Virus record (IMG/VR): IMGVR_UViG_3300013233_000325
Span: 1 to 52,102 of that record
Reading direction: 5' to 3' (one strand)
Source: a virus
Length of the DNA: 52,102 nucleotides
Positions 2,290-12,436 of this stretch are shown in pieces. Below the pieces are notes generated by a model. That model saw only the letters and a list, made by a program, of their open reading frames with translations. It had not been told where the DNA came from and ran no database searches. The position numbers and the translations under genes are program-made. Position 1 is the first letter of the stretch. The number at the start of each line of letters is the position of its first letter.

Positions 2290-2815
2290 ACTCCACCACG
2301 ACCTAGACCCTGGCTTTCGTGCCCTGGCTCGTCGTTTCAGCGGTGGGGACCAGCACCTGGAACAGGACCTGCTGCAAGGCGCACACCTGCGCGTGATCGA
2401 GCAAGTCGCCCGGTACGGAGCACGACCCAGGACGGAAATCCTTCGGATCTGTGGTACAATTGGCAGAAACTCCATGGTCGACTTCGTTCGGAAGTGGACG
2501 AACCGAGACCCGGAAGAGGGAGGAGAGGCCGTTTACGATCTGGCCGGACCTAGCGTCGATGTCGTCTCAAAAATCAGCGCACAGGGCAAAATCGAACACC
2601 TCTTATTCAGCCTGAGCAAGCACGCCCGCCGTCTTTTCGAACTCACGCTCGATCCGCCTAGTGACATGGACGAGAAAGGTCGTTTTAAGCTGAAAGTCAG
2701 CGACCGCGCCGCTGCCGCCTACCTCGGGATTTCGCCCGCAACTGCCTCGCGGGCACGGAACGAGTTGCGGCAACGCGCAGTCGAAATCGGGCTGCACGAT
2801 CCAACGGCTGTGTAG
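2273..2815 (+). CDS. Sigma-70/ECF-like RNA polymerase sigma factor
   Basis: A 180-aa protein. The N-terminal half resembles sigma region 2 (DQHLEQDLLQGAHLRVIEQV, then FVRKWTNRD). The C-terminal part has a region-4-type helix-turn-helix (SDRAAAAYLGISPATASRAR). The length fits a small ECF-type sigma. A GGAGAA Shine-Dalgarno lies about 9 nt before the ATG. It could redirect host RNA polymerase to phage promoters; an HTH regulator is the alternative. Its last 119 nt overlap the 3' end of the convergent primase gene, which is unusually long for a convergent overlap. Confidence 0.75.
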   Translation: MPKLPKLHHDLDPGFRALARRFSGGDQHLEQDLLQGAHLRVIEQVARYGARPRTEILRICGTIGRNSMVDFVRKWTNRDPEEGGEAVYDLAGPSVDVVSKISAQGKIEHLLFSLSKHARRLFELTLDPPSDMDEKGRFKLKVSDRAAAAYLGISPATASRARNELRQRAVEIGLHDPTAV

Positions 2816-3710
2816 AGTCTAGGATCTCCTGGCACCGGTCGTGCCCGAGTTTCGACGGGTCCTGACCTTTCATTCGTCGCCAGTTCGCCACGCGGACGTC
2901 TTCGAAACCCTCATCAATGAGACGCGCAGCCAGCTTCATCGCCGAGACTGCAGCGTCCGGATCGAGGACCACGTACACGCAAGAGACTTCGTGCTCCTGC
3001 AGAATCTGAATCTGACGCGCCGAAATGGTATTGCCTAAGAGGCACGTTCCAACTCGTCGCACGTCTGGGTCTGTAAGAGGCACCGCGTCAAACGGGCCCT
3101 CACCGATGGCGACCTCACATCCTAGCGTGAAGTCGTCATGAGCGAATAGAACCTCATTTCTAGGCCATGCTTCCTCGGGGTCCGGATTTCTCGTCCTTAG
3201 TCCCTGGTCCCCAAAGATGTCTCGACCCTGCCAGTAGACGGGGACTCCGTACTCCCGGAAGAGCCACACGGCCCGCCCCTGCAGCCGTTCGTCCTCGCAG
3301 ATCCCGACCTCCCACCGGTCGAGGTCAACCCCCCTGCCCTGCATGTACTCGCGGGCCCATTCCTCCATCTTCCCATGGTCCCCCGTGGGGTGAAGACGGC
3401 GGTACCCCACGGGTGTGGCGTCGGTGGGGTTTCCCTTGGCTTCCCTCTGCATCCGAGCCCGGATCTGGGCCCATCGCCCCTCCTGGTTCTTGAGGCCCAG
3501 GAAGGACGCGGGAGACAGCCCGATGTCGAGGGCCAGGAGGACCAGGGAGGGAGCACGCTGGCACCGGAAGCACCATGCCCTACCTTGAGACACGCAGACG
3601 CCAAATTTTTTGCGAGCAGAGCAGTAGGGGCAATCGTAATTGACCCAATCTCGACTAGACCGGTCCGATTGGCCAAGCTTTTCAGTTAACGCTTTGAGGA
3701 AGGGGTCCAA
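2697..3710 (-). CDS. DNA primase (zinc finger plus TOPRIM)
   Basis: A 337-aa DnaG-type primase synthesising RNA primers at the fork with the helicase encoded just upstream. An N-terminal zinc-binding domain has CPYC at about residues 27-30 and CFRC at about 47-50. The TOPRIM domain has GEGPFDAV (catalytic Glu) and VVLDPDA (DxD), metal-binding residues. The last 40 or so residues are Arg-rich and are read antisense to the HTH of the sigma-like gene, so the tail may be a late extension. The start overlaps the 97-aa gene by 25 nt. Confidence 0.9.
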   Translation of the reverse strand: MDPFLKALTEKLGQSDRSSRDWVNYDCPYCSARKKFGVCVSQGRAWCFRCQRAPSLVLLALDIGLSPASFLGLKNQEGRWAQIRARMQREAKGNPTDATPVGYRRLHPTGDHGKMEEWAREYMQGRGVDLDRWEVGICEDERLQGRAVWLFREYGVPVYWQGRDIFGDQGLRTRNPDPEEAWPRNEVLFAHDDFTLGCEVAIGEGPFDAVPLTDPDVRRVGTCLLGNTISARQIQILQEHEVSCVYVVLDPDAAVSAMKLAARLIDEGFEDVRVANWRRMKGQDPSKLGHDRCQEILDSTQPLDRAARFRLRVAATRSVPARQLRAKSRGRRQRRGR

Positions 3711-5231: not shown

Positions 5232-5678
5232 TCAGGGTGTCCAAGGTTTGAAAAATTTAAGTTCGTCCAAAGTAGGATACTTTCCGGTGAAAGTGATAAC
5301 CCTGTCGTCAAGAGCCACTACAGCGGGCGGTTTCACTTTCGGAAAGTACACACTGTTACGGATCACGCGGTCCGCGTTCCACAACATCGACCTGTGGAAG
5401 TTCATGTACCGGCGAATAAGCCAATCACGCATGGCGTCTATCCCGCCCTGTTGGTGGGACCTGGACGAATGAACATGAAGGTCAAAAAACTCGTCTCTGA
5501 TGAGTTCTGTAATCCATTTCATCGCTCCTTCGATGGGGTCGCCTTTGCACACGCTGGCACCTTCCCACCTGTGGTAAGTCATCAACGTGCCGTCAAAGTC
5601 TATGCACAGGATCGGTTTCCCCTTGTACGCGTCAGGCGTCACCCCGTCTACGTTTTCCCATTCGTAACGGTTCATCAT
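5232..5678 (-). CDS. HAD-superfamily phosphatase
   Basis: An ATGATGA overlap with the kinase-MazZ stop sets the start at 5678 (or 5675), giving about 148 aa. HAD motif I is CIDFDGTL (nucleophile and acid Asp), motif II is HVHSSRS, and motif III/IV is KVKPPAVVALDDR. The substrate cannot be read from the sequence. Because it lies inside the purine-modification cluster and no DatZ is present, a nucleotide phosphatase acting on dAMP or another purine nucleotide is a reasonable hypothesis. A polynucleotide 3'-phosphatase is the alternative. Confidence 0.85.
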   Translation of the reverse strand: MMNRYEWENVDGVTPDAYKGKPILCIDFDGTLMTYHRWEGASVCKGDPIEGAMKWITELIRDEFFDLHVHSSRSHQQGGIDAMRDWLIRRYMNFHRSMLWNADRVIRNSVYFPKVKPPAVVALDDRVITFTGKYPTLDELKFFKPWTP

Positions 5679-6730
5679 ACGTCTACCTGCTCGTTGCACA
5701 TGAGACACCGTTGGCATTGTGACCTCAAGTCCCACGCACTTGACCGGTGTTCACATGGTTTCGCTTTGCCAATATGCTCATCATCTTTGCCAACCTTGTT
5801 CCTGGCGGAGTAACCACCGGAACGGGCCCGTGCTTTGTTGATTTCGAGCTTCTTGTAATAAAGCGATGACACGTCATGCGCCGACATACCCAGGGACATG
5901 CACGCCGAGAAGAAGAAATGTAACATGTCTACCATTTCGACCCTGCACGCTCTGAGGTCCGCACCGTCGATCGTCCACCATTTCTCGGGAATCTCGTCTA
6001 TCGCCTCCACACACTCCTTTTTGAGTTGTCGTAGAAAGCGACCGGTCCACTCCACGTAGGGTTGGGTGATAGGGGCAGTGTCTTTACTCGACGCCATGCG
6101 CCTCATTTCTGATAAAGAGGGTTGAATCCCCTGCATTCGAAAAGACTCATCCACAAACTCCAGGTGCGCGTCCATCATCGATTCGAGGTCCGCAGAAGAA
6201 GGACCCCCAAACGTTGATACGGTCTTCGTTTCCAGGTCGGCGATTTTGACGTCCATACCGGATGTGGCCAACGACGCCAGGACATCAACGAAAACCCCGT
6301 CCTCATGTCGTAATCGAGCGTTGATCAACTTTTCGTCATCCGGGTTTTGGGCCCTCTGTGCAATTCGTCGTTTCCGTTCTTCCTCGGAACAGGTGCAGTA
6401 AACGATCTTATGTCGAACGTTCTGGTTTCTGTCTGCGAGTTCTTTAATAAAAGCAACTTGGCTCACCGACCTGGGCATGGAGTCCACCACGAGCGTATCC
6501 CCGTCAGAGAGGTTTTCAAAACACTCCTCGACGAGACCGCGCACGTAATCTTCGGTCATGTCCGGTGTAACTGGGTTTTCGGATTCCGCCATGTCAGACT
6601 CTCCAAACTTCTCGCGGCACGCACGGCCCGTGTGAAGGACTGCGTAATTCACGAACTTTGCGAGCCTTTCGGCTTCGACACTCTTACCGACACACGTTTT
6701 GCCGGTGAGCCAAATCACTTCTCGATTCAT
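5675..6730 (-). CDS. mazZ: NMP kinase-like / MazZ (MazG-dUTPase fold) fusion protein
   Basis: 351 aa, starting at the ATG whose ATGA overlaps the PurZ stop. The N-terminal domain (1-180) is an adenylate/nucleotide kinase-like P-loop protein with GKTCVGKS at about 10-17, a DTLVVDSMPRS segment and an Arg-rich lid (EEERKRRIAQR). The C-terminal domain (about 215-310) has all-alpha NTP-pyrophosphohydrolase motifs: ECVEAIDEIPEKWW and VEMVDMLHFFF, giving ExxE and ExxD metal sites as in MazG/dimeric dUTPase and MazZ. In Z-genome phages MazZ converts dGTP to dGMP for PurZ. A C-terminal Cys-rich tail (CEHR then CQRC, C) may bind zinc. The kinase could phosphorylate dZMP or dGMP; this is inference. Confidence 0.85.
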   Translation of the reverse strand: MNREVIWLTGKTCVGKSVEAERLAKFVNYAVLHTGRACREKFGESDMAESENPVTPDMTEDYVRGLVEECFENLSDGDTLVVDSMPRSVSQVAFIKELADRNQNVRHKIVYCTCSEEERKRRIAQRAQNPDDEKLINARLRHEDGVFVDVLASLATSGMDVKIADLETKTVSTFGGPSSADLESMMDAHLEFVDESFRMQGIQPSLSEMRRMASSKDTAPITQPYVEWTGRFLRQLKKECVEAIDEIPEKWWTIDGADLRACRVEMVDMLHFFFSACMSLGMSAHDVSSLYYKKLEINKARARSGGYSARNKVGKDDEHIGKAKPCEHRSSAWDLRSQCQRCLMCNEQVDV

Positions 6731-7839
6731 GCGATCTCCACCATGTCTTCCATCTTGGGACCGGTACCTAGCAGGGAGACTTTCGGGGGTCGGCCCCACG
6801 CGTCTATGCCACACCCGTGAATTTCTGTAACAAACGACTTGGCACTCGACGACAGAAGGCTCTGAGATCGGACCGCATAATTGCTTTTATGAATGTAGTT
6901 CACAAAATTGACGAAAAGATCCGTGGGGGCGCACACGCGCAGGAACTTTTCGTATTGCATCCACGACCAGGAGAAGATTCGCCGTTGACGCTTGGTCACG
7001 GTGGTGAGTTCAGGGCGCAGGGTCTGACCCATGAGGTCTGACAGTTCATCCCACTCGTATTCCACTTGGTCTCTGTAGTAAGGACCGGAGTCCCCAGTTT
7101 TCACTCCCGCATCGTCGTAGATGTGGCCCACTCGAATCGGGAACGCACGGAGTGATCCCCACACGCGACCGAGACAATGAGGCGGAAGACCCAGGTTGTT
7201 GAGAGCCGATGCCGTAGTGACGTCTCGACTCGTAACGTAAGGGTACGAATGCCCGTGGTTCAGCGACAGGTCGAATCCCTGTGCTGTCTCCGCGAGAACC
7301 GTACCACCGCCACGCAGGGTAGACGCCAGATAGGCCGTCGTGTCCTGGATGAACGGTTTGAGTTCTGGAATGTCCTTAGCAGTCGGGGCTCTGCGCATTA
7401 CTTTACGCACCAGGGCAGCACCAACTCCTTTCTGTGTTGACCCGATGAATCCGGTACCCTTGAGTTCCGATCGCTCCGCGAGAGCATCGTCCTCAGTGAT
7501 GATTCCGGCCATAGGGTGGATTGCCAGTCGATCCGCGACTCCGTACTTATCGAGTTCGTCGATTTCCTGGAGTAGCTTTTCGACCGTGATTCCTGCACTC
7601 GCACCGATTATCACCATGGCATCCAGGTTGACAACCGAACACGGCAGGTGGTGGAGCACGTGGGAAGTGTCATCCTCCAAAACGAACGTGTGACCGGCAT
7701 TGGAGTTGAAATCAGCCGTGACGGCTGCTAACTCTTCCCGGTCACCCAGGTACGCCGCGAGCTTTCCTTTGCCCGTGGAGCCCCATTGTCCGTCAAGAAC
7801 GATGTTGCACTTCCCCTTATCGAGGAAGCGGTTGGTCAT
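6727..7839 (-). CDS. purZ: PurZ-type adenylosuccinate synthetase homologue
   Basis: 370 aa, shorter than bacterial PurA (about 430). The P-loop reads GQWGSTGKGK (residues 17-26), where PurA has WGDEGKGK. The catalytic Asp is therefore Ser21, the substitution reported for PurZ enzymes that join Asp to dGMP, giving N6-succino-2-amino-dAMP on the way to 2-aminoadenine (Z). NAGHT (His50) and GTQKGVGAA are conserved. The product would be processed by host PurB. It is overlapped by ATGA on both sides, downstream of SSB and upstream of the MazZ fusion. A PurA acting on IMP is unlikely because the base Asp is missing. Confidence 0.92.
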   Translation of the reverse strand: MTNRFLDKGKCNIVLDGQWGSTGKGKLAAYLGDREELAAVTADFNSNAGHTFVLEDDTSHVLHHLPCSVVNLDAMVIIGASAGITVEKLLQEIDELDKYGVADRLAIHPMAGIITEDDALAERSELKGTGFIGSTQKGVGAALVRKVMRRAPTAKDIPELKPFIQDTTAYLASTLRGGGTVLAETAQGFDLSLNHGHSYPYVTSRDVTTASALNNLGLPPHCLGRVWGSLRAFPIRVGHIYDDAGVKTGDSGPYYRDQVEYEWDELSDLMGQTLRPELTTVTKRQRRIFSWSWMQYEKFLRVCAPTDLFVNFVNYIHKSNYAVRSQSLLSSSAKSFVTEIHGCGIDAWGRPPKVSLLGTGPKMEDMVEIA

Positions 7840-8936
7840 TTTTTGCCTTTTTTACCCTTCTTGCTGGACTTCTTCTTTGAAGTCTTCTTCTTACTGGACT
7901 TGCCCTTTTTGGCCTTGTTGTAAGCCTCCAGAGCTTTAGGAGTCAGAGTAACGAAGTCGTCGCGGCCCATGGTGTAGGTCTCACCATCGAGTTCCGCCTT
8001 GACATCGTATTCCCCGTCCTCGTACCCGGTGATTTCGCCGTGGGACTTGCCTTCGTCGAGTTCGAACTTGCAGATCGTACCGTTGGGCTCGACGTCCTCC
8101 TCCTCCTCTTCTTCGTCGTCCTCGGGCTCTTCTTCCTCTTCCTCTTCCTCTTCCTCTTCTTCCTCGTCGTCGGACTCCTCTTCCTCCTCTTCCTCCTCTT
8201 CTTCCTCGTCATCCTCGGGGGCGTCGGATTCCTCTTCTTCCTCTTCTTCCTCTTCTGACTCCTCTTTATCGGAATCGTCCTTCTTGTGACCGGCTTCCAA
8301 GTAGTCGGCGTCGAACAGATCTTTCAGGTCCTCGGCCACGTCTTCTTCGAGTTCCGGCGACTTTTTCGCAGTCCGCACAACCATCTTGTACATGTTGGAC
8401 GGTTCCAACTTGCTGTTGCGGGTCACGATGATGTCACACCCTTTGCACCCGAAGATGTCTTCGGACTCGTACTCACCAGACGTGAGGAGTTCGAGGATCT
8501 TCGCAAAGAGGGACTGGGGCATGGTCAGGACTTGCATCCCGCCTTCCAGGTTCTTCATGTCGATCGCGTTGACGTGGAACTGACGCGTGACTTTCATCCG
8601 CTTGCCAGCCGACTGTTCCGACTTCTTGCTGGAACCCATAAGTTCCGACGCCTCAGCACACGTTTTGCACTTCTTGCCTGAGCAAGGACGAGGCGGTTCA
8701 TTCGGAACGAAGTGCTGCAGGGTCTCCCGGTGGATTTCCTCCTGTGTGCTTCCGACCTTCGGTGCGCCAGGAGCGCCCTTGATGTAGAAGCCTTTGCCGT
8801 AGTCGCCTTTGGTGACTTTGTGATTGAACGTGAAAACCCGAATGTCGGTCCTCCCGTCCTTGAGTTTCAGGAACCCGCCACCGCGAGTTTCGATGTTGTC
8901 CTGAGTTGCTTTGTATCGGTCTAAATTGAGAGCCAT
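7836..8936 (-). CDS. gp32-like single-stranded DNA-binding protein with acidic and Lys-rich tails
   Basis: 366 aa. The N-terminal 190 residues resemble T4 gp32-type SSBs: a GGGFLKLKDGRTDIRVF start, an H plus CSGKKCKTC cluster for zinc (about 75-90), and basic/aromatic stretches. A very long Glu/Asp tract (about residues 225-285) follows, then a small SH3/KOW-like unit (GEITGYEDGEYDVKAELDG), then a Lys/Ser tail. Acidic SSB tails recruit replication proteins; the acid-barrel-Lys arrangement here is unusual. The coding strand is an almost pure purine run over the acidic tract. Confidence 0.85.
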   Translation of the reverse strand: MALNLDRYKATQDNIETRGGGFLKLKDGRTDIRVFTFNHKVTKGDYGKGFYIKGAPGAPKVGSTQEEIHRETLQHFVPNEPPRPCSGKKCKTCAEASELMGSSKKSEQSAGKRMKVTRQFHVNAIDMKNLEGGMQVLTMPQSLFAKILELLTSGEYESEDIFGCKGCDIIVTRNSKLEPSNMYKMVVRTAKKSPELEEDVAEDLKDLFDADYLEAGHKKDDSDKEESEEEEEEEEESDAPEDDEEEEEEEEEEESDDEEEEEEEEEEEEEPEDDEEEEEEDVEPNGTICKFELDEGKSHGEITGYEDGEYDVKAELDGETYTMGRDDFVTLTPKALEAYNKAKKGKSSKKKTSKKKSSKKGKKGKK

Positions 8937-8938
8937 GA

Positions 8939-9193
8939 TTACTTACCCTTGCGGGCCTTCTTTTTCCTACTGGGGGTTTTACGCTTCGCGGGGGCTTCGC
9001 CCTTCGCTTCTGCGAGTTGTTTGGACAGTTCCTTTTCGACGAAGTGCACGCAAGCTGCGAGCGCATCCTCGGGATCGGTATCATCCAGAATAGGGAGGGT
9101 AATGCCAACGTCGATTCTTTGAGATTCGAAGTTGCCGAGATTGAGGGTCACTCCCTGAGAGTAACGCACTTCGCCGTTTGTGTTACGCGGCAT
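8939..9193 (-). CDS. Small Lys-rich replication-cluster protein, 84 aa
   Basis: The ATG at 9193 is preferred because it just overlaps the polymerase stop (9185-9183); the frame is open further upstream. The sequence begins MPRNTNGEVRYSQGVTLNLG, has a core ISLPILDD-like strand and helix (EDALAACVHFVEKEL), and ends in a Lys/Arg tail. It lies 2 nt upstream of the SSB gene. Probably a DNA-binding or SSB-partner protein; no family assigned. Confidence 0.75.
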   Translation of the reverse strand: MPRNTNGEVRYSQGVTLNLGNFESQRIDVGITLPILDDTDPEDALAACVHFVEKELSKQLAEAKGEAPAKRKTPSRKKKARKGK

Positions 9194-11561
9194 GTTCAGT
9201 GATTTGGTGCTTGAGGTTCGGCCCGCTAGTGACATCTGCAATCAGCGGGATCGTAAGGAAGGGGAACATTTCGGTCGTCCATTTCGTCATCCAGTAGTGG
9301 AGCAGACTGCTGACGGTCCGGATTTCTTCCGGGGGACAATCGATAATAATAGAGTCATGCACTTGGCCGATGATTACCGCGTCCAGCCCGAGACGGAAAA
9401 TGTCATCTTCGACCATTTGCATAACGATGAGGGTGATGTCGCTGCCGAGACTTTGAATCTCGTGGTTTGTGGCTTGACGTTCGGCCCTCCACCGTTCGTA
9501 GTTGACATCGGATCGGATCCCCGGCAAGTGACGTGGGCGACCAAGCTTGGACACCGCCATTTGGGAATGGTACGCTGCATCCCTTGTGTCTTGAATCCAC
9601 TTATCAACAGCTTTGTGGGTGCCGAAATAGGTATCCAACAGAGCTTGTGCGTAACGGGTGTCCCCAGGTCGGCCCAGTTGGATGGCCAACTTCTTGGGAC
9701 CAATGCCATAGATCACGCCGAATCCCGCCCGTTTCCCTTCCATTCGTTGAGTCTTCGTGACTTTCTCAGGCAGAATGCCATAGATCTTCGCCGCCGTGTT
9801 TGTGTGGGCGTCGATTCCCTTGGAGAACGTTTCGTGTAGGACCGGCTCTCCACTTAGTGAACCAAGGAGTCGAACTTCCAACTGCGAGAAGTCAGCCTGA
9901 ATGATAGCGCCTTTCGGGAAACGACTGGTAAAGACCTCTTTAACCCGTCCTTCCACTGCGATGTTTTGCAGGTTTGGGTCCTGGCTCGACAATCGACCCG
10001 TCACTACAACATCTTGTCGGAATGAGGAGTTGATGCATGAATCGGGGCGCAGCCTTAACCGGTAGTCTTTGAGATCCCGAACAGCGTACTGCAGAGACCT
10101 CAATGCCGTGAGACGACCGGCGATTTTGTGATCGATGGCCCAAATCCGCAGGTATTCGCCTTTCGTGGACGGTCCACCACCTGGGGTTTCACCCAGGACC
10201 GGCAGTTTCAGAACAGTGAACAACAGCACCTGCATCTGTTTGGTACTGTCCACATTGAACAACACGCCCGGTTTCAGTCCACAGATTCTCTTGGCTTTCT
10301 TGACCGCAGGGTAGGATTCGAGTTTGGCCCGTGCTTTGTCCTTCTCCTCGTCCAGTTCCTTTATGAGTTGGTCCGCGTTTGCGCGGTTAATGTACATGCC
10401 GTTGAGTTCGACACGGGCGAGAGTCTTGCATGCACCAAGGGAAATGTTGCGGTAGTTCCACAACATTTGTTCATGGTCGGGGTGCTGCATGGCTTCTTCA
10501 TAAAGACCATCGCGGAGCCTGTATGTAACATCACAGTCACCAGCGCAGTAGGGCCAAATGTCGTCCATAGGCCCATTTGCGTAGGCCTCGGACACGCCCA
10601 TTTCCGCCTTCAATTCCTCCATCTTCGTATCATACCCGCCAATCGTCGTGTACTGGTACGCCAGGGGAGAAAGAGCGTGCGCCTCCTCTTCCCTCAGGTA
10701 GGAGTGGAGTAGGATTGTGTCATCGTCCAGGTTTCGGACGGGCACGCCCCAAATGGCGTGTGCGACCTTGATCTCGAATTTCGCGTTATGACACGTTTTT
10801 CGACAGGGGTGAGATCCCACCCACCTAGCACACTCTATCCACGCCTCGGGACAGGCTTCGAGGTCGATGACAAAAGCCTCCCCCTCACGTACCGCGACAC
10901 CCATGCATCGGATCCGGAAGTCAGGATCACACATGTTGAGGCCGGTAGCTTCGAAGTCGAACGTAGGGCGATCGAAAACGCCAATGCCAGCAAGGCGTCG
11001 CTTCGCCTCTTTGCGATCCGTAACGAGGTCCCAGGTTGTGTCACTGAGGTCGATTTCTTTGTTTGCATAGATCTCACGCACAGAGCGCATCTGAGTGATG
11101 AACTCCCGCATTTTGCCCGGAGTGTGAGCCATCTGGTCTGGGTGGAACACTGGGACGCATTTCCGCTCACCCAGGTCCTCGCGAGTCTTCACCTGCCGAC
11201 CGGCCCATGACGTGATCTTTTTGAGATCGGTCACGGCCTCGAATGCGTGAGACCCCAGAGGCACGACCAGCGACGGGTCCAGCCGTTTGATCTCGGCTGT
11301 AATTCGCTCCCGGTTTGCCGCGATCATCGCCTTTGTGGGCTTGCGACCCCTCACCAAGTAATCATCTACGATCACGAGGTCTACGATTGTCACCTTGTCG
11401 GCAAATCCGTCCTTGTTGAATTCCGAGACTAGAGCCTCACCACCTGAGTCGTGTCGGCAAACCGTGGTCTTTTCTTCATCGCAGAAGTTCGGCCACACGA
11501 CAAGCACAACATTCGACTTGCGGATCTTCCGCTTCCGTTTGATGCCTTTGCGTGCGATCAT
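9183..11561 (-). CDS. dpoZ: Family A DNA polymerase (DpoZ-like) with UDG-like N-terminus
   Basis: 792 aa. Residues 1-165 resemble a uracil-DNA-glycosylase fold (VPLGSHAFEAV, then VPVFHPDQ). A DEDD 3'-5' exonuclease follows: Exo I FDFEATGLN (about 192), Exo II CHNAKFE where the usual Asp is Glu, Exo III YCAGDCD. The palm has motif A ADFSQLEVRLLG (about 553), motif B RMEGKRAGFGVIYG (about 605) and motif C QVHDSIIID (about 732), with Ser replacing the usual Glu. No 5'-nuclease domain is present. With PurZ and MazZ nearby it is the likely DpoZ that incorporates dZTP. Start by ATGA overlap with the nuclease gene. Confidence 0.93.
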   Translation of the reverse strand: MIARKGIKRKRKIRKSNVVLVVWPNFCDEEKTTVCRHDSGGEALVSEFNKDGFADKVTIVDLVIVDDYLVRGRKPTKAMIAANRERITAEIKRLDPSLVVPLGSHAFEAVTDLKKITSWAGRQVKTREDLGERKCVPVFHPDQMAHTPGKMREFITQMRSVREIYANKEIDLSDTTWDLVTDRKEAKRRLAGIGVFDRPTFDFEATGLNMCDPDFRIRCMGVAVREGEAFVIDLEACPEAWIECARWVGSHPCRKTCHNAKFEIKVAHAIWGVPVRNLDDDTILLHSYLREEEAHALSPLAYQYTTIGGYDTKMEELKAEMGVSEAYANGPMDDIWPYCAGDCDVTYRLRDGLYEEAMQHPDHEQMLWNYRNISLGACKTLARVELNGMYINRANADQLIKELDEEKDKARAKLESYPAVKKAKRICGLKPGVLFNVDSTKQMQVLLFTVLKLPVLGETPGGGPSTKGEYLRIWAIDHKIAGRLTALRSLQYAVRDLKDYRLRLRPDSCINSSFRQDVVVTGRLSSQDPNLQNIAVEGRVKEVFTSRFPKGAIIQADFSQLEVRLLGSLSGEPVLHETFSKGIDAHTNTAAKIYGILPEKVTKTQRMEGKRAGFGVIYGIGPKKLAIQLGRPGDTRYAQALLDTYFGTHKAVDKWIQDTRDAAYHSQMAVSKLGRPRHLPGIRSDVNYERWRAERQATNHEIQSLGSDITLIVMQMVEDDIFRLGLDAVIIGQVHDSIIIDCPPEEIRTVSSLLHYWMTKWTTEMFPFLTIPLIADVTSGPNLKHQITEHAA

Positions 11562-12436
11562 TTGAGTCTCTTAGAACCTCGGCAGCGGTCCCAAAAACCA
11601 CAGAATCGATCTGAGCATGCCCACGAGTCGGGCTGTGCAAGGGGGAAGACGCCCGCTTTGATGGACTTGCCAACGTCAATGAAGATTTCCCGTGCCCACG
11701 CTTGTCGTTGAGGCGACATCGCTGCACGTGTGACGTGGACTTTCGGCTCTTTGGTCTTCGCCAGGGTGATGAACTTCGTCTCTTTGATGCCTGTGGCTTT
11801 GGCATACGTGGCCAATTGCAGGGAGTTTTCGGCATCAGAAACGGACTTCTTGCGAGCGGCGACCTTGTAATCGGCCACGGCCATTCGCGGGGCTCCTTTT
11901 TGGAACTCCGGATCTTCCACCCTACCTTCGAAGTCGGTGAACCCGAAGACAGGAACATCGCCCATCATTATTTCGAACTTGTTCTCCGCTCTAACCGGTG
12001 TCAAGGTGGACGCAACGTTCTCTAGGTAGACTTTAACAAGACCCGGCCCACGTTCAATCGCTTCATTGCGATAGATCATAGGGATCTTGTCTCGTTTGGC
12101 ATTATCGCTGAAATAATCGAGGAACATAGTCGTCGCCGGTTTTACCGCCATGTCCTCCCCAGTCTGGATTTTGCGCACGTTGTTGGCCTCAAGCCAATCG
12201 TGGTGACTGGAACCCTCCGTCATCGCGACACCGGGCGGTTCCTTCAGTCCGTCGATGTATCGGAATTCGAACTGCTTTCCGCACCTTTGGTACATGCTGG
12301 CAGCAGAGACCGATAGATAACCTTTTGGCAACCAGTCAACAGGTTCGAGGGTTTCTAGGCCGAAGACCTTCCCGCCCTTTGGATTCTTGACCGTGGTTAC
12401 TTTGCCTAACGTCTTTTTCTTCTTACTTATCGCCAT
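11558..12436 (-). CDS. RecB/Cas4-like PD-(D/E)XK nuclease
   Basis: 292 aa. Motifs in order: LSVSAASMYQRCGKQFEFRY, GSSHHDW, VFGFTDFEGRV, VADYKVAARK and LQLATYAKATG, matching the PDDEXK_1/RecB C-terminal nuclease domain (Asp and Lys of the active site in ADYK). A C-terminal Cys cluster CSDRFCGFWDRC, with the early RCGKQF Cys, is the usual Fe-S ligand set. It probably works in recombination or end processing with the polymerase. Confidence 0.88.
   Translation of the reverse strand: MAISKKKKTLGKVTTVKNPKGGKVFGLETLEPVDWLPKGYLSVSAASMYQRCGKQFEFRYIDGLKEPPGVAMTEGSSHHDWLEANNVRKIQTGEDMAVKPATTMFLDYFSDNAKRDKIPMIYRNEAIERGPGLVKVYLENVASTLTPVRAENKFEIMMGDVPVFGFTDFEGRVEDPEFQKGAPRMAVADYKVAARKKSVSDAENSLQLATYAKATGIKETKFITLAKTKEPKVHVTRAAMSPQRQAWAREIFIDVGKSIKAGVFPLAQPDSWACSDRFCGFWDRCRGSKRLK

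What the first reader, a model, noticed from the sequence alone, without database searches (positions are those of the whole stretch)
6727..7839. PurZ signature: genome probably contains 2-aminoadenine instead of adenine
The PurA-like protein has Ser21 in GQWGSTGKGK in place of the catalytic Asp, the known PurZ change, and is flanked by a MazZ domain and a DpoZ-like polymerase. This is the third-purine pathway replacing A by Z.
Basis: partly seen in the sequence, partly recalled or inferred. Interest (0 to 1): 0.75.

Follow-up and report, generated by a model that had tools for sequence, protein, structure and literature searches.

The report
Third-purine gene cluster with own kinase
This uncultured phage carries a real PurZ gene, the key enzyme for building DNA with 2-aminoadenine (Z) instead of adenine, but its neighbouring genes are an unreported set that pairs PurZ with an adenylate-kinase-like enzyme (probably the missing step that phosphorylates the new base) and a DNA polymerase unlike the known Z-polymerases.

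Summary
The PurZ call holds. The 370-aa protein has Ser21 in place of PurA's catalytic Asp, keeps nearly all mapped dGMP-pocket residues, and branches inside PurZ, away from PurA and PurZ0; its nucleotide-site motif (NFVN) is the ATP type. Two props of the finding fail. The polymerase is not a DpoZ: it lacks the helix-O Phe, and a common clade with DpoZ is rejected (AU p=7e-5). The downstream gene is not a MazZ but an adenylate-kinase-like domain fused to a dUTPase_2-type NTP pyrophosphohydrolase. No DatZ was detected. This is a recurrent variant: in 26 non-redundant PurZ loci an AdK-like kinase follows purZ directly, 40 have DatZ instead, none has both, and 70 polymerase-matched loci without purZ (1.34 Mb) have no such kinase. 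The kinase keeps the Gln that reads adenine in adenylate kinase, so I infer a dedicated dZMP kinase, a step credited to host enzymes in the papers I could read. No named phage carries the cluster. Substrates, polymerase Z-selectivity and the extent of A-to-Z replacement are untested. PurZ itself is a new member of a known family; the cluster is a new variant of a known kind.

The parts
6727..7839 (-). purZ: succino-aminodeoxyadenylate synthetase, 370 aa; ATP-type
7777..7779 (-). Ser21 codon (TCC), replaces PurA catalytic Asp13
   Evidence: sequence; alignment
5675..6730 (-). bifunctional gene directly after purZ (ATGA overlap): NMP kinase + NTP pyrophosphohydrolase, 351 aa
6209..6730 (-). adenylate-kinase-like domain, residues 1-174 (Walker A, GxxxR, DSMPRSVSQ)
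5801..6187 (-). dUTPase_2 / all-alpha NTP-PPase domain, residues about 182-310, with conserved ExxE and ExxD motifs
5232..5678 (-). HAD-like phosphatase gene (DFDGT motif), ATGA overlap with the kinase gene; role unknown
7836..8936 (-). single-strand DNA binding protein, ATGA overlap with purZ
   Evidence: PHROG 1192, 6.8e-10; one search shows it upstream of purZ in relatives
9183..11561 (-). family A DNA polymerase with UDG-like N-terminal domain and 3'-5' exonuclease; third PurZ-linked PolA lineage, not DpoZ
9708..9710 (-). Tyr618 in motif B (helix O), Phe in most DpoZ enzymes
   Evidence: PMC8599892
3966..5231 (-). DnaB-like replicative helicase, same gene order in relatives
2697..3710 (-). 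DNA primase (weak Toprim/DnaG match)
11558..12436 (-). PD-(D/E)XK nuclease, upstream of PolA as in relatives

Best explanation
The locus is a 2-aminoadenine (Z) synthesis cluster of a variant kind, called here the kinase-type Z-cluster. PurZ condenses dGMP with aspartate, using ATP (or dATP), to give dSMP (inferred from residues and phylogeny, about 0.9). A host PurB would convert dSMP to dZMP, as no PurB was found in the window. The gene joined to purZ encodes a two-domain enzyme: its pyrophosphohydrolase domain cuts dNTPs to dNMPs, most likely dGTP to dGMP to feed PurZ and perhaps dATP to dAMP (about 0.5), and its adenylate-kinase-like domain phosphorylates dZMP to dZDP (about 0.5). A host NDK would make dZTP. 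The UDG-exo-PolA polymerase then copies with dZTP; whether it prefers Z over A is unknown. Shown here: gene content, order, domain identity, conserved catalytic and base-reading residues, and the recurrent link between purZ, the kinase and this polymerase lineage. Inferred: every substrate, and the presence of Z in the DNA.
For: PurZ: of 28 mapped sites of the S-2L dGMP and ATP pockets, 25 are identical in the window and two more match phiVC8 or SH-Ab 15497 (S21, T135, R149, V237, T279-T282, R286 and the ATP-site motif N311-F312-x-N314, where GTP-using PurA and PurZ0 have Asp at the last site; structures in PMC8342488). Trees: PurZ clade 100/99 without PurA or PurZ0; window in a ten-row subclade 96/95 in which nine rows are kinase-type. 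Cluster: in 26 non-redundant loci an AdK-like kinase follows purZ, with frames -97 to +281 nt apart in 24 of them and overlapping stop-to-stop frames in the window and L035; 40 have DatZ, none both; 38 of 42 kinase hits in PurZ loci are adjacent; 0 hits in 70 polymerase-matched loci without purZ, 1.34 Mb. Kinase versus DatZ needs one change on the careful tree. An independent contig reached through the polymerase (L171/L237) also has purZ-kinase-NTPPase. Kinase: best solved relatives are UMP-CMP and adenylate kinases (8.6e-15); model pLDDT 87, Z 16 to both; in the adjacent kinases the residue at AdK Gln92 is Gln, as in adenylate kinase and unlike Asn in UMP-CMP kinase. PPase: ExxE/ExxD invariant, dUTPase_2 family. 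Polymerase: of 19 PolA rows in the window's clade, 18 come from purZ phages.
Against: No biochemical data on any member; no isolate carries the cluster. Sequence cannot separate dZMP from dAMP or AMP as the kinase's substrate, and the PPase family is known for dUTP and dCTP, not dGTP. PolA keeps the ordinary Tyr and no DatZ was found, so exclusion of dATP is unexplained. L173 has the same PolA clade without purZ, and L023 sits in the kinase-type PurZ clade without a kinase. Loci were picked by similarity to PurZ, so counts are not a random sample.
Confidence: 0.6

Rival explanations
1. PurZ makes Z, but the fused kinase is a general (d)AMP/AMP kinase that regenerates ADP/ATP or recycles adenylates, and the PPase is an ordinary dUTPase/dCTPase; host enzymes phosphorylate dZMP as in phiVC8.
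For: Closest families are adenylate kinase and dimeric dUTPase. PMC8342488 reports that V. cholerae host enzymes complete the pathway in vitro.
Against: The kinase sits directly on purZ in 26 non-redundant loci, never together with DatZ, and is absent from 70 comparison loci. Phosphorylating dAMP would oppose replacing A by Z.
Confidence: 0.3
2. Only part of the adenine is replaced: a non-selective polymerase and no DatZ leave a mixed A/Z genome. (Compatible with the best explanation for the enzymes; it differs in the outcome.)
For: No DatZ found (best profile hit E 2.9); PolA keeps motif-B Tyr and is outside both DpoZ clades. In S-2L the polymerase takes both A and Z and DatZ removes dATP (abstracts of PMC8065100 and PMC8342488).
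Against: PurZ of S-2L consumes dATP as phosphate donor (PMC8342488), and the fused PPase may cut dATP as the DutZ enzymes do (PMC12884076). The PolA lineage co-segregates with purZ.
Confidence: 0.35
3. The gene is a diverged PurA that acts on IMP and only supplies adenylate to the infected cell.
For: Same superfamily; PurA profiles also match.
Against: Asp13 to Ser; PurZ-type loop TTVT; ATP-type site; tree placement.
Confidence: 0.04
4. The enzyme is a PurZ0-type, GTP-using synthetase.
For: A dUTPase-like pool enzyme instead of DatZ recalls PurZ0 phages (PMC12884076).
Against: NFVN rather than T/S-M-x-D at the NTP site; outside the PurZ0 clade, which has 100/99 support.
Confidence: 0.04

Closest known systems
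datZ-mazZ-purZ Z-cluster of cyanophage S-2L and phiVC8-like phages (PMC8342488)
   Same: ATP-type PurZ with the same active-site residues; a nucleotide pyrophosphohydrolase gene joined to purZ.
   Different: No DatZ found; PPase is of the dUTPase_2 type and fused to an AdK-like kinase; the cited cluster contains no kinase.
PurZ0 phages with DutZ, DmtZ, DUF5664 and DpoZ-1 (PMC12884076)
   Same: PurZ-family enzyme with Ser at the catalytic position, and a pool enzyme drafted from a dUTPase-like family.
   Different: Different PurZ clade and NTP site; no DmtZ or trimeric Dut in the window; unrelated polymerase clade.
DpoZ Z-selective family A polymerases (PMC8599892)
   Same: Family A polymerase with 3'-5' exonuclease encoded close to purZ.
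   Different: UDG-like N-terminal domain, Tyr kept in helix O, separate clade (AU p 7e-5).
SPO1-type UDG-exo-PolA polymerases
   Same: Best named-phage matches over most of the length are SPO1-like Bacillus phages, 27-29% identity.
   Different: Low identity; SPO1 DNA carries hydroxymethyluracil (own knowledge), not Z.
Adenylate kinase / UMP-CMP kinase family
   Same: Fold (Z about 16), Walker A, NMP-phosphate Arg, DGFPR-x3-Q motif.
   Different: No long LID insert; fused or adjacent to a dNTP pyrophosphohydrolase and joined to purZ; substrate unknown.
Bacillus phage vB_BpsS-140
   Same: PurZ-type gene plus an AdK-like kinase and a Dut in one genome.
   Different: Kinase lies 8.9 kb from purZ; the genome part read has a DnaE polymerase in two frames; PurZ branches outside the kinase-type clade.

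Membership tests
PurZ | Ser in place of PurA catalytic Asp13 | tested here: met
   Ser21
PurZ | Branches with PurZ, not with IMP-using PurA | tested here: met
   99; 100/99
PurZ | ATP-type nucleotide site (N-F-x-N/Q), not PurA/PurZ0 type (x-x-x-D) | tested here: met
   N311 F312 N314
PurZ | NCBIfam NF038379 curated score of 300 (an annotation threshold, not a mechanistic feature) | tested here: not met
   217.6 bits, though still the best NCBIfam hit
PurZ | Converts dGMP + Asp + ATP to dSMP | not testable with these tools
   Needs an enzyme assay
PurZ0 | Clusters with PurZ0 and has the GTP-type site | tested here: not met
DpoZ | Clusters with DpoZ-1 or DpoZ-2 | tested here: not met
   joint clade with the PurZ-type DpoZ rejected, p-AU 7.4e-5
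DpoZ | Helix-O Tyr to Phe | tested here: not met
   Tyr618 kept
DpoZ | Prefers dZTP over dATP | not testable with these tools
   Needs a primer-extension assay
MazZ | Matches MazZ-1 or MazZ-2 profile | tested here: not met
   MazZ-1 6.5 bits, E 0.31; MazZ-2 best hit elsewhere, E 0.29
MazZ | All-alpha NTP-PPase catalytic motif | tested here: met
   E64xxE67 and E90xxD93 (domain numbering) invariant in 9 sequences
MazZ | (d)GTP-specific diphosphohydrolase | not testable with these tools
   Needs an enzyme assay
datZ-mazZ-purZ Z-cluster | datZ present next to purZ/mazZ | tested here: not met
   No DatZ-profile hit in the 52-kb window (best E 2.9); the record may be incomplete
Adenylate-kinase family | Walker A, NMP-phosphate Arg, DGFPR-x3-Q | tested here: met
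   the window has DSMPR
Adenylate-kinase family | AdK/UMP-CMP kinase fold | tested here: met
   pLDDT 87; Z 16.2, 2.9 A over 161-163 residues
Adenylate-kinase family | Phosphorylates a 6-aminopurine NMP | not testable with these tools
   Needs a kinase assay with dZMP, dAMP, AMP, dGMP

The most novel reading that the evidence does not exclude
A third type of Z-DNA phage exists that encodes its own dZMP kinase, often fused to a dNTP pyrophosphohydrolase so that one protein both supplies dGMP to PurZ and phosphorylates dZMP, together with a third, independently recruited Z-tolerant or Z-selective polymerase lineage and no DatZ.
Probability: 0.45. Interest if true: 0.78.

Novelty: new variant of a known kind. 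Interest (0 to 1): 0.58.

Why it matters
In the papers I could read, the steps from dSMP to dZTP are credited to host enzymes (PMC8342488), while exclusion of dA is credited to DatZ in S-2L and to DpoZ, helped by DatZ, in phiVC8. This cluster offers a candidate phage kinase for the middle step and a lineage in which neither DatZ nor DpoZ is seen, so both assumptions become testable. A dedicated dZMP kinase would also be a practical part for making Z-containing DNA in the laboratory.

Tried and rejected
Single-sequence searches of viral contigs with PurZ and with the fusion protein found nothing; the alignment search was needed. PurA and PurZ0 identity rejected. DpoZ identity rejected. DatZ, DmtZ, trimeric Dut, DUF5664 and PurB sought in the window and not found. 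A fold search with the PPase domain alone gave no significant match (best E 0.58), although top ranks were all-alpha NTP-PPases; the sequence match to dUTPase_2 was used instead. No paper held in the library mentions a kinase in a PurZ cluster; subscription papers (for example the 2021 Science papers) could not be read, so absence of a report is provisional.

Full report
What is there. The window is a 52,102-base virus record without tRNA genes whose structural genes are those of a tailed phage (portal, major head protein, terminase large subunit, tape measure). On the minus strand lies a tight block: PD-(D/E)XK nuclease, family A polymerase, a small protein, single-strand binding protein, purZ, a kinase-pyrophosphohydrolase fusion, a HAD-like protein, DnaB helicase and primase. 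The SSB-purZ, purZ-fusion and fusion-HAD junctions are ATGA overlaps, so these genes are probably translated together.

The PurZ call. The 370-aa product has GQWGSTGKGK with Ser21 where E. coli PurA has Asp13. Of 28 mapped residues that line the S-2L PurZ pockets (PMC8342488), 25 are identical in the window and two more match another characterised PurZ: the dGMP pocket, the TTVT loop, Arg286 and the ATP site N311-F312-x-N314. PurA and PurZ0 have Asp at the last position, so the window enzyme should use ATP or dATP. Named phages are at most about 38% identical. In a maximum-likelihood tree the PurZ clade excludes PurA and PurZ0 with 100/99 support, and the window sits in a ten-row clade (96/95) of uncultured phages (quick tree). 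The NCBIfam PurZ model gives 217.6 bits, under its 300-bit cut-off, which I read as distance from the isolates used to build the model.

What is not as stated. The polymerase has a UDG-like N-terminal domain (PF03167), an exonuclease and a PolA domain; its best named-phage matches are SPO1-like polymerases (27-29% identity). It keeps the helix-O Tyr; the Phe at this site is the one characteristic change shared by both DpoZ clades according to PMC8599892 (in my alignment Hiyaa, one of the PurZ0 phages, also reads Tyr). A tree in which the window-type polymerases and the PurZ-type DpoZ form one clade is rejected (p-AU 7.4e-5). The 'MazZ' is a fusion. Residues 1-174 are adenylate-kinase-like: profile matches to UMP-CMP and adenylate kinases at 8.6e-15 and weaker, AlphaFold pLDDT 87, Z about 16 to both families, with PFKFB kinases equally high on fold alone. 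Residues about 182-310 match dUTPase_2 (8.7e-8; dimeric dUTPases in the PDB) with the ExxE and ExxD catalytic motifs invariant across nine relatives. MazZ-1, MazZ-2, DatZ, DmtZ, DutZ, DUF5664 and PurB profiles find nothing convincing in the window.

A recurrent cluster. An alignment search of IMG/VR gave at least 585 PurZ relatives, of which the best 80 were kept, and 63 loci from genome contigs. Profiles for each accessory gene were run over all of them. After removing loci with identical PurZ cores, 143 remained: 26 have an AdK-like kinase immediately after purZ, 40 have DatZ within 2.5 kb, none has both, and 77 have neither (mostly PurZ0, cellular, large-phage or Clostridia-type PurZ). Of 42 kinase hits in PurZ loci 38 are adjacent to purZ. 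Seventy loci retrieved through the polymerase and lacking purZ, 1.34 Mb in all, have no kinase hit. In the window's closest relatives the kinase is fused to the same PPase domain (L016, L017, L019, L020, L025, L160); in L021 and L237 the two domains are separate neighbouring genes; in a second group (L026-L028, L031, L046, L056, L061) the kinase is followed by a trimeric dUTPase-like gene. On the careful tree kinase-type and DatZ-type PurZ need a single change of state. L023 lies inside the kinase-type clade but has a DUF5664-like gene and a Dut instead of the kinase, so the cassette is not universal there. The Fisher p-value ignores relatedness and is not relied on.

The polymerase lineage. 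A polymerase-based search was used as a separate handle. The closest polymerases all came from contigs that carry purZ and the kinase. In the larger tree 18 of 19 rows of the window's PolA clade are from purZ contigs; the exception is L173, whose 42-kb record has no PF00709 match. In the smaller careful tree the nine-row clade holding the window is 99/94, while the polymerases of the second kinase group fall apart from it, so a single PolA origin for all kinase-type phages is not settled. L171 was found through its polymerase and turned out to have purZ, kinase and PPase at the other end of its record.

How it most likely works. PurZ makes dSMP from dGMP; a host PurB makes dZMP; the kinase makes dZDP; a host kinase makes dZTP. 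The kinase keeps Gln at the position of E. coli AdK Gln92 in all adjacent kinases read, where UMP-CMP kinase has Asn. From established knowledge of adenylate kinases this Gln contacts the adenine of AMP, so the kinase should accept a 6-aminopurine monophosphate. In a phage that replaces A by Z, dZMP is the useful substrate and dAMP the harmful one, hence the inference of a dZMP kinase. The PPase would feed PurZ with dGMP and may lower dATP, by analogy with DutZ and DUF5664, which were drafted from other families for this task (PMC12884076). PurZ using dATP as donor, as S-2L PurZ can (PMC8342488), would lower dATP further. None of these substrates has been tested.

Comparison with what is known. 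[quoted passage not shown] PMC12884076 describes two accessory sets (DatZ/MazZ/DUF550 with PurZ; DutZ/DmtZ/DUF5664 with PurZ0) and two DpoZ clades; the word kinase does not occur in its text. No named phage has a matching kinase. The cluster is therefore a new variant of the known third-purine system as far as the held literature shows.

Limits. All members are uncultured, the distant BpsS-140 case apart; loci were chosen by similarity to PurZ; many contigs are fragments; the most important claim, the kinase's substrate, rests on context and one base-reading residue.

Noticed in passing
L003 (Bacillus phage vB_BpsS-140): 16956-18077, 27003-27536, 28805-32418: A cultured phage with a PurZ-type gene (GQVGSEGKGK), a distant AdK-like kinase, a Dut, and a DnaE-type polymerase read in two overlapping frames; no PolA seen in the 35 kb read. 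It may be the nearest isolate for testing a PurZ genome with a kinase.
   Followed up: partly
L058, L062, L063, L065, L073, L083, L085, L090: Mostly large contigs (36-408 kb) carry a separate PurZ clade with neither DatZ nor the kinase cassette; in L063 a different P-loop protein and a glutamine-synthetase-like gene follow purZ.
   Followed up: no
L101-L127, L129, L130, L136, L157: Clostridia and Bacilli assemblies hold a divergent PurZ-type clade (mostly GQAGSCGKGK, NFAQY) with none of the known Z accessory genes nearby.
   Followed up: no
L131, L134, L137, L139, L141-L146, L148, L150, L151, L158: Alphaproteobacterial and other cellular contigs (Sphingomonas, Devosia, Sinorhizobium, Hellea) carry a Ser-type PurA/PurZ (GQFGSEGKGK, NHLDY) next to a dUTPase-like gene; whether these are prophages or cellular systems is unknown.
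   Followed up: no
L173:9743-12103: Polymerase of the window's clade with an intact UDG GEAPG motif in a 42-kb record without purZ: a possible natural comparison for Z adaptation of the polymerase.
   Followed up: partly
window 5232-5678 (-): HAD-like phosphatase gene between the fusion and DnaB, with relatives in Microcystis and Bradyrhizobium phages (39-40% identity); possibly a nucleotide phosphatase.
   Followed up: no
window 7836-8936 (-): The SSB has a very long acidic, Glu-rich tract followed by a Lys-rich C-terminal end.
   Followed up: no
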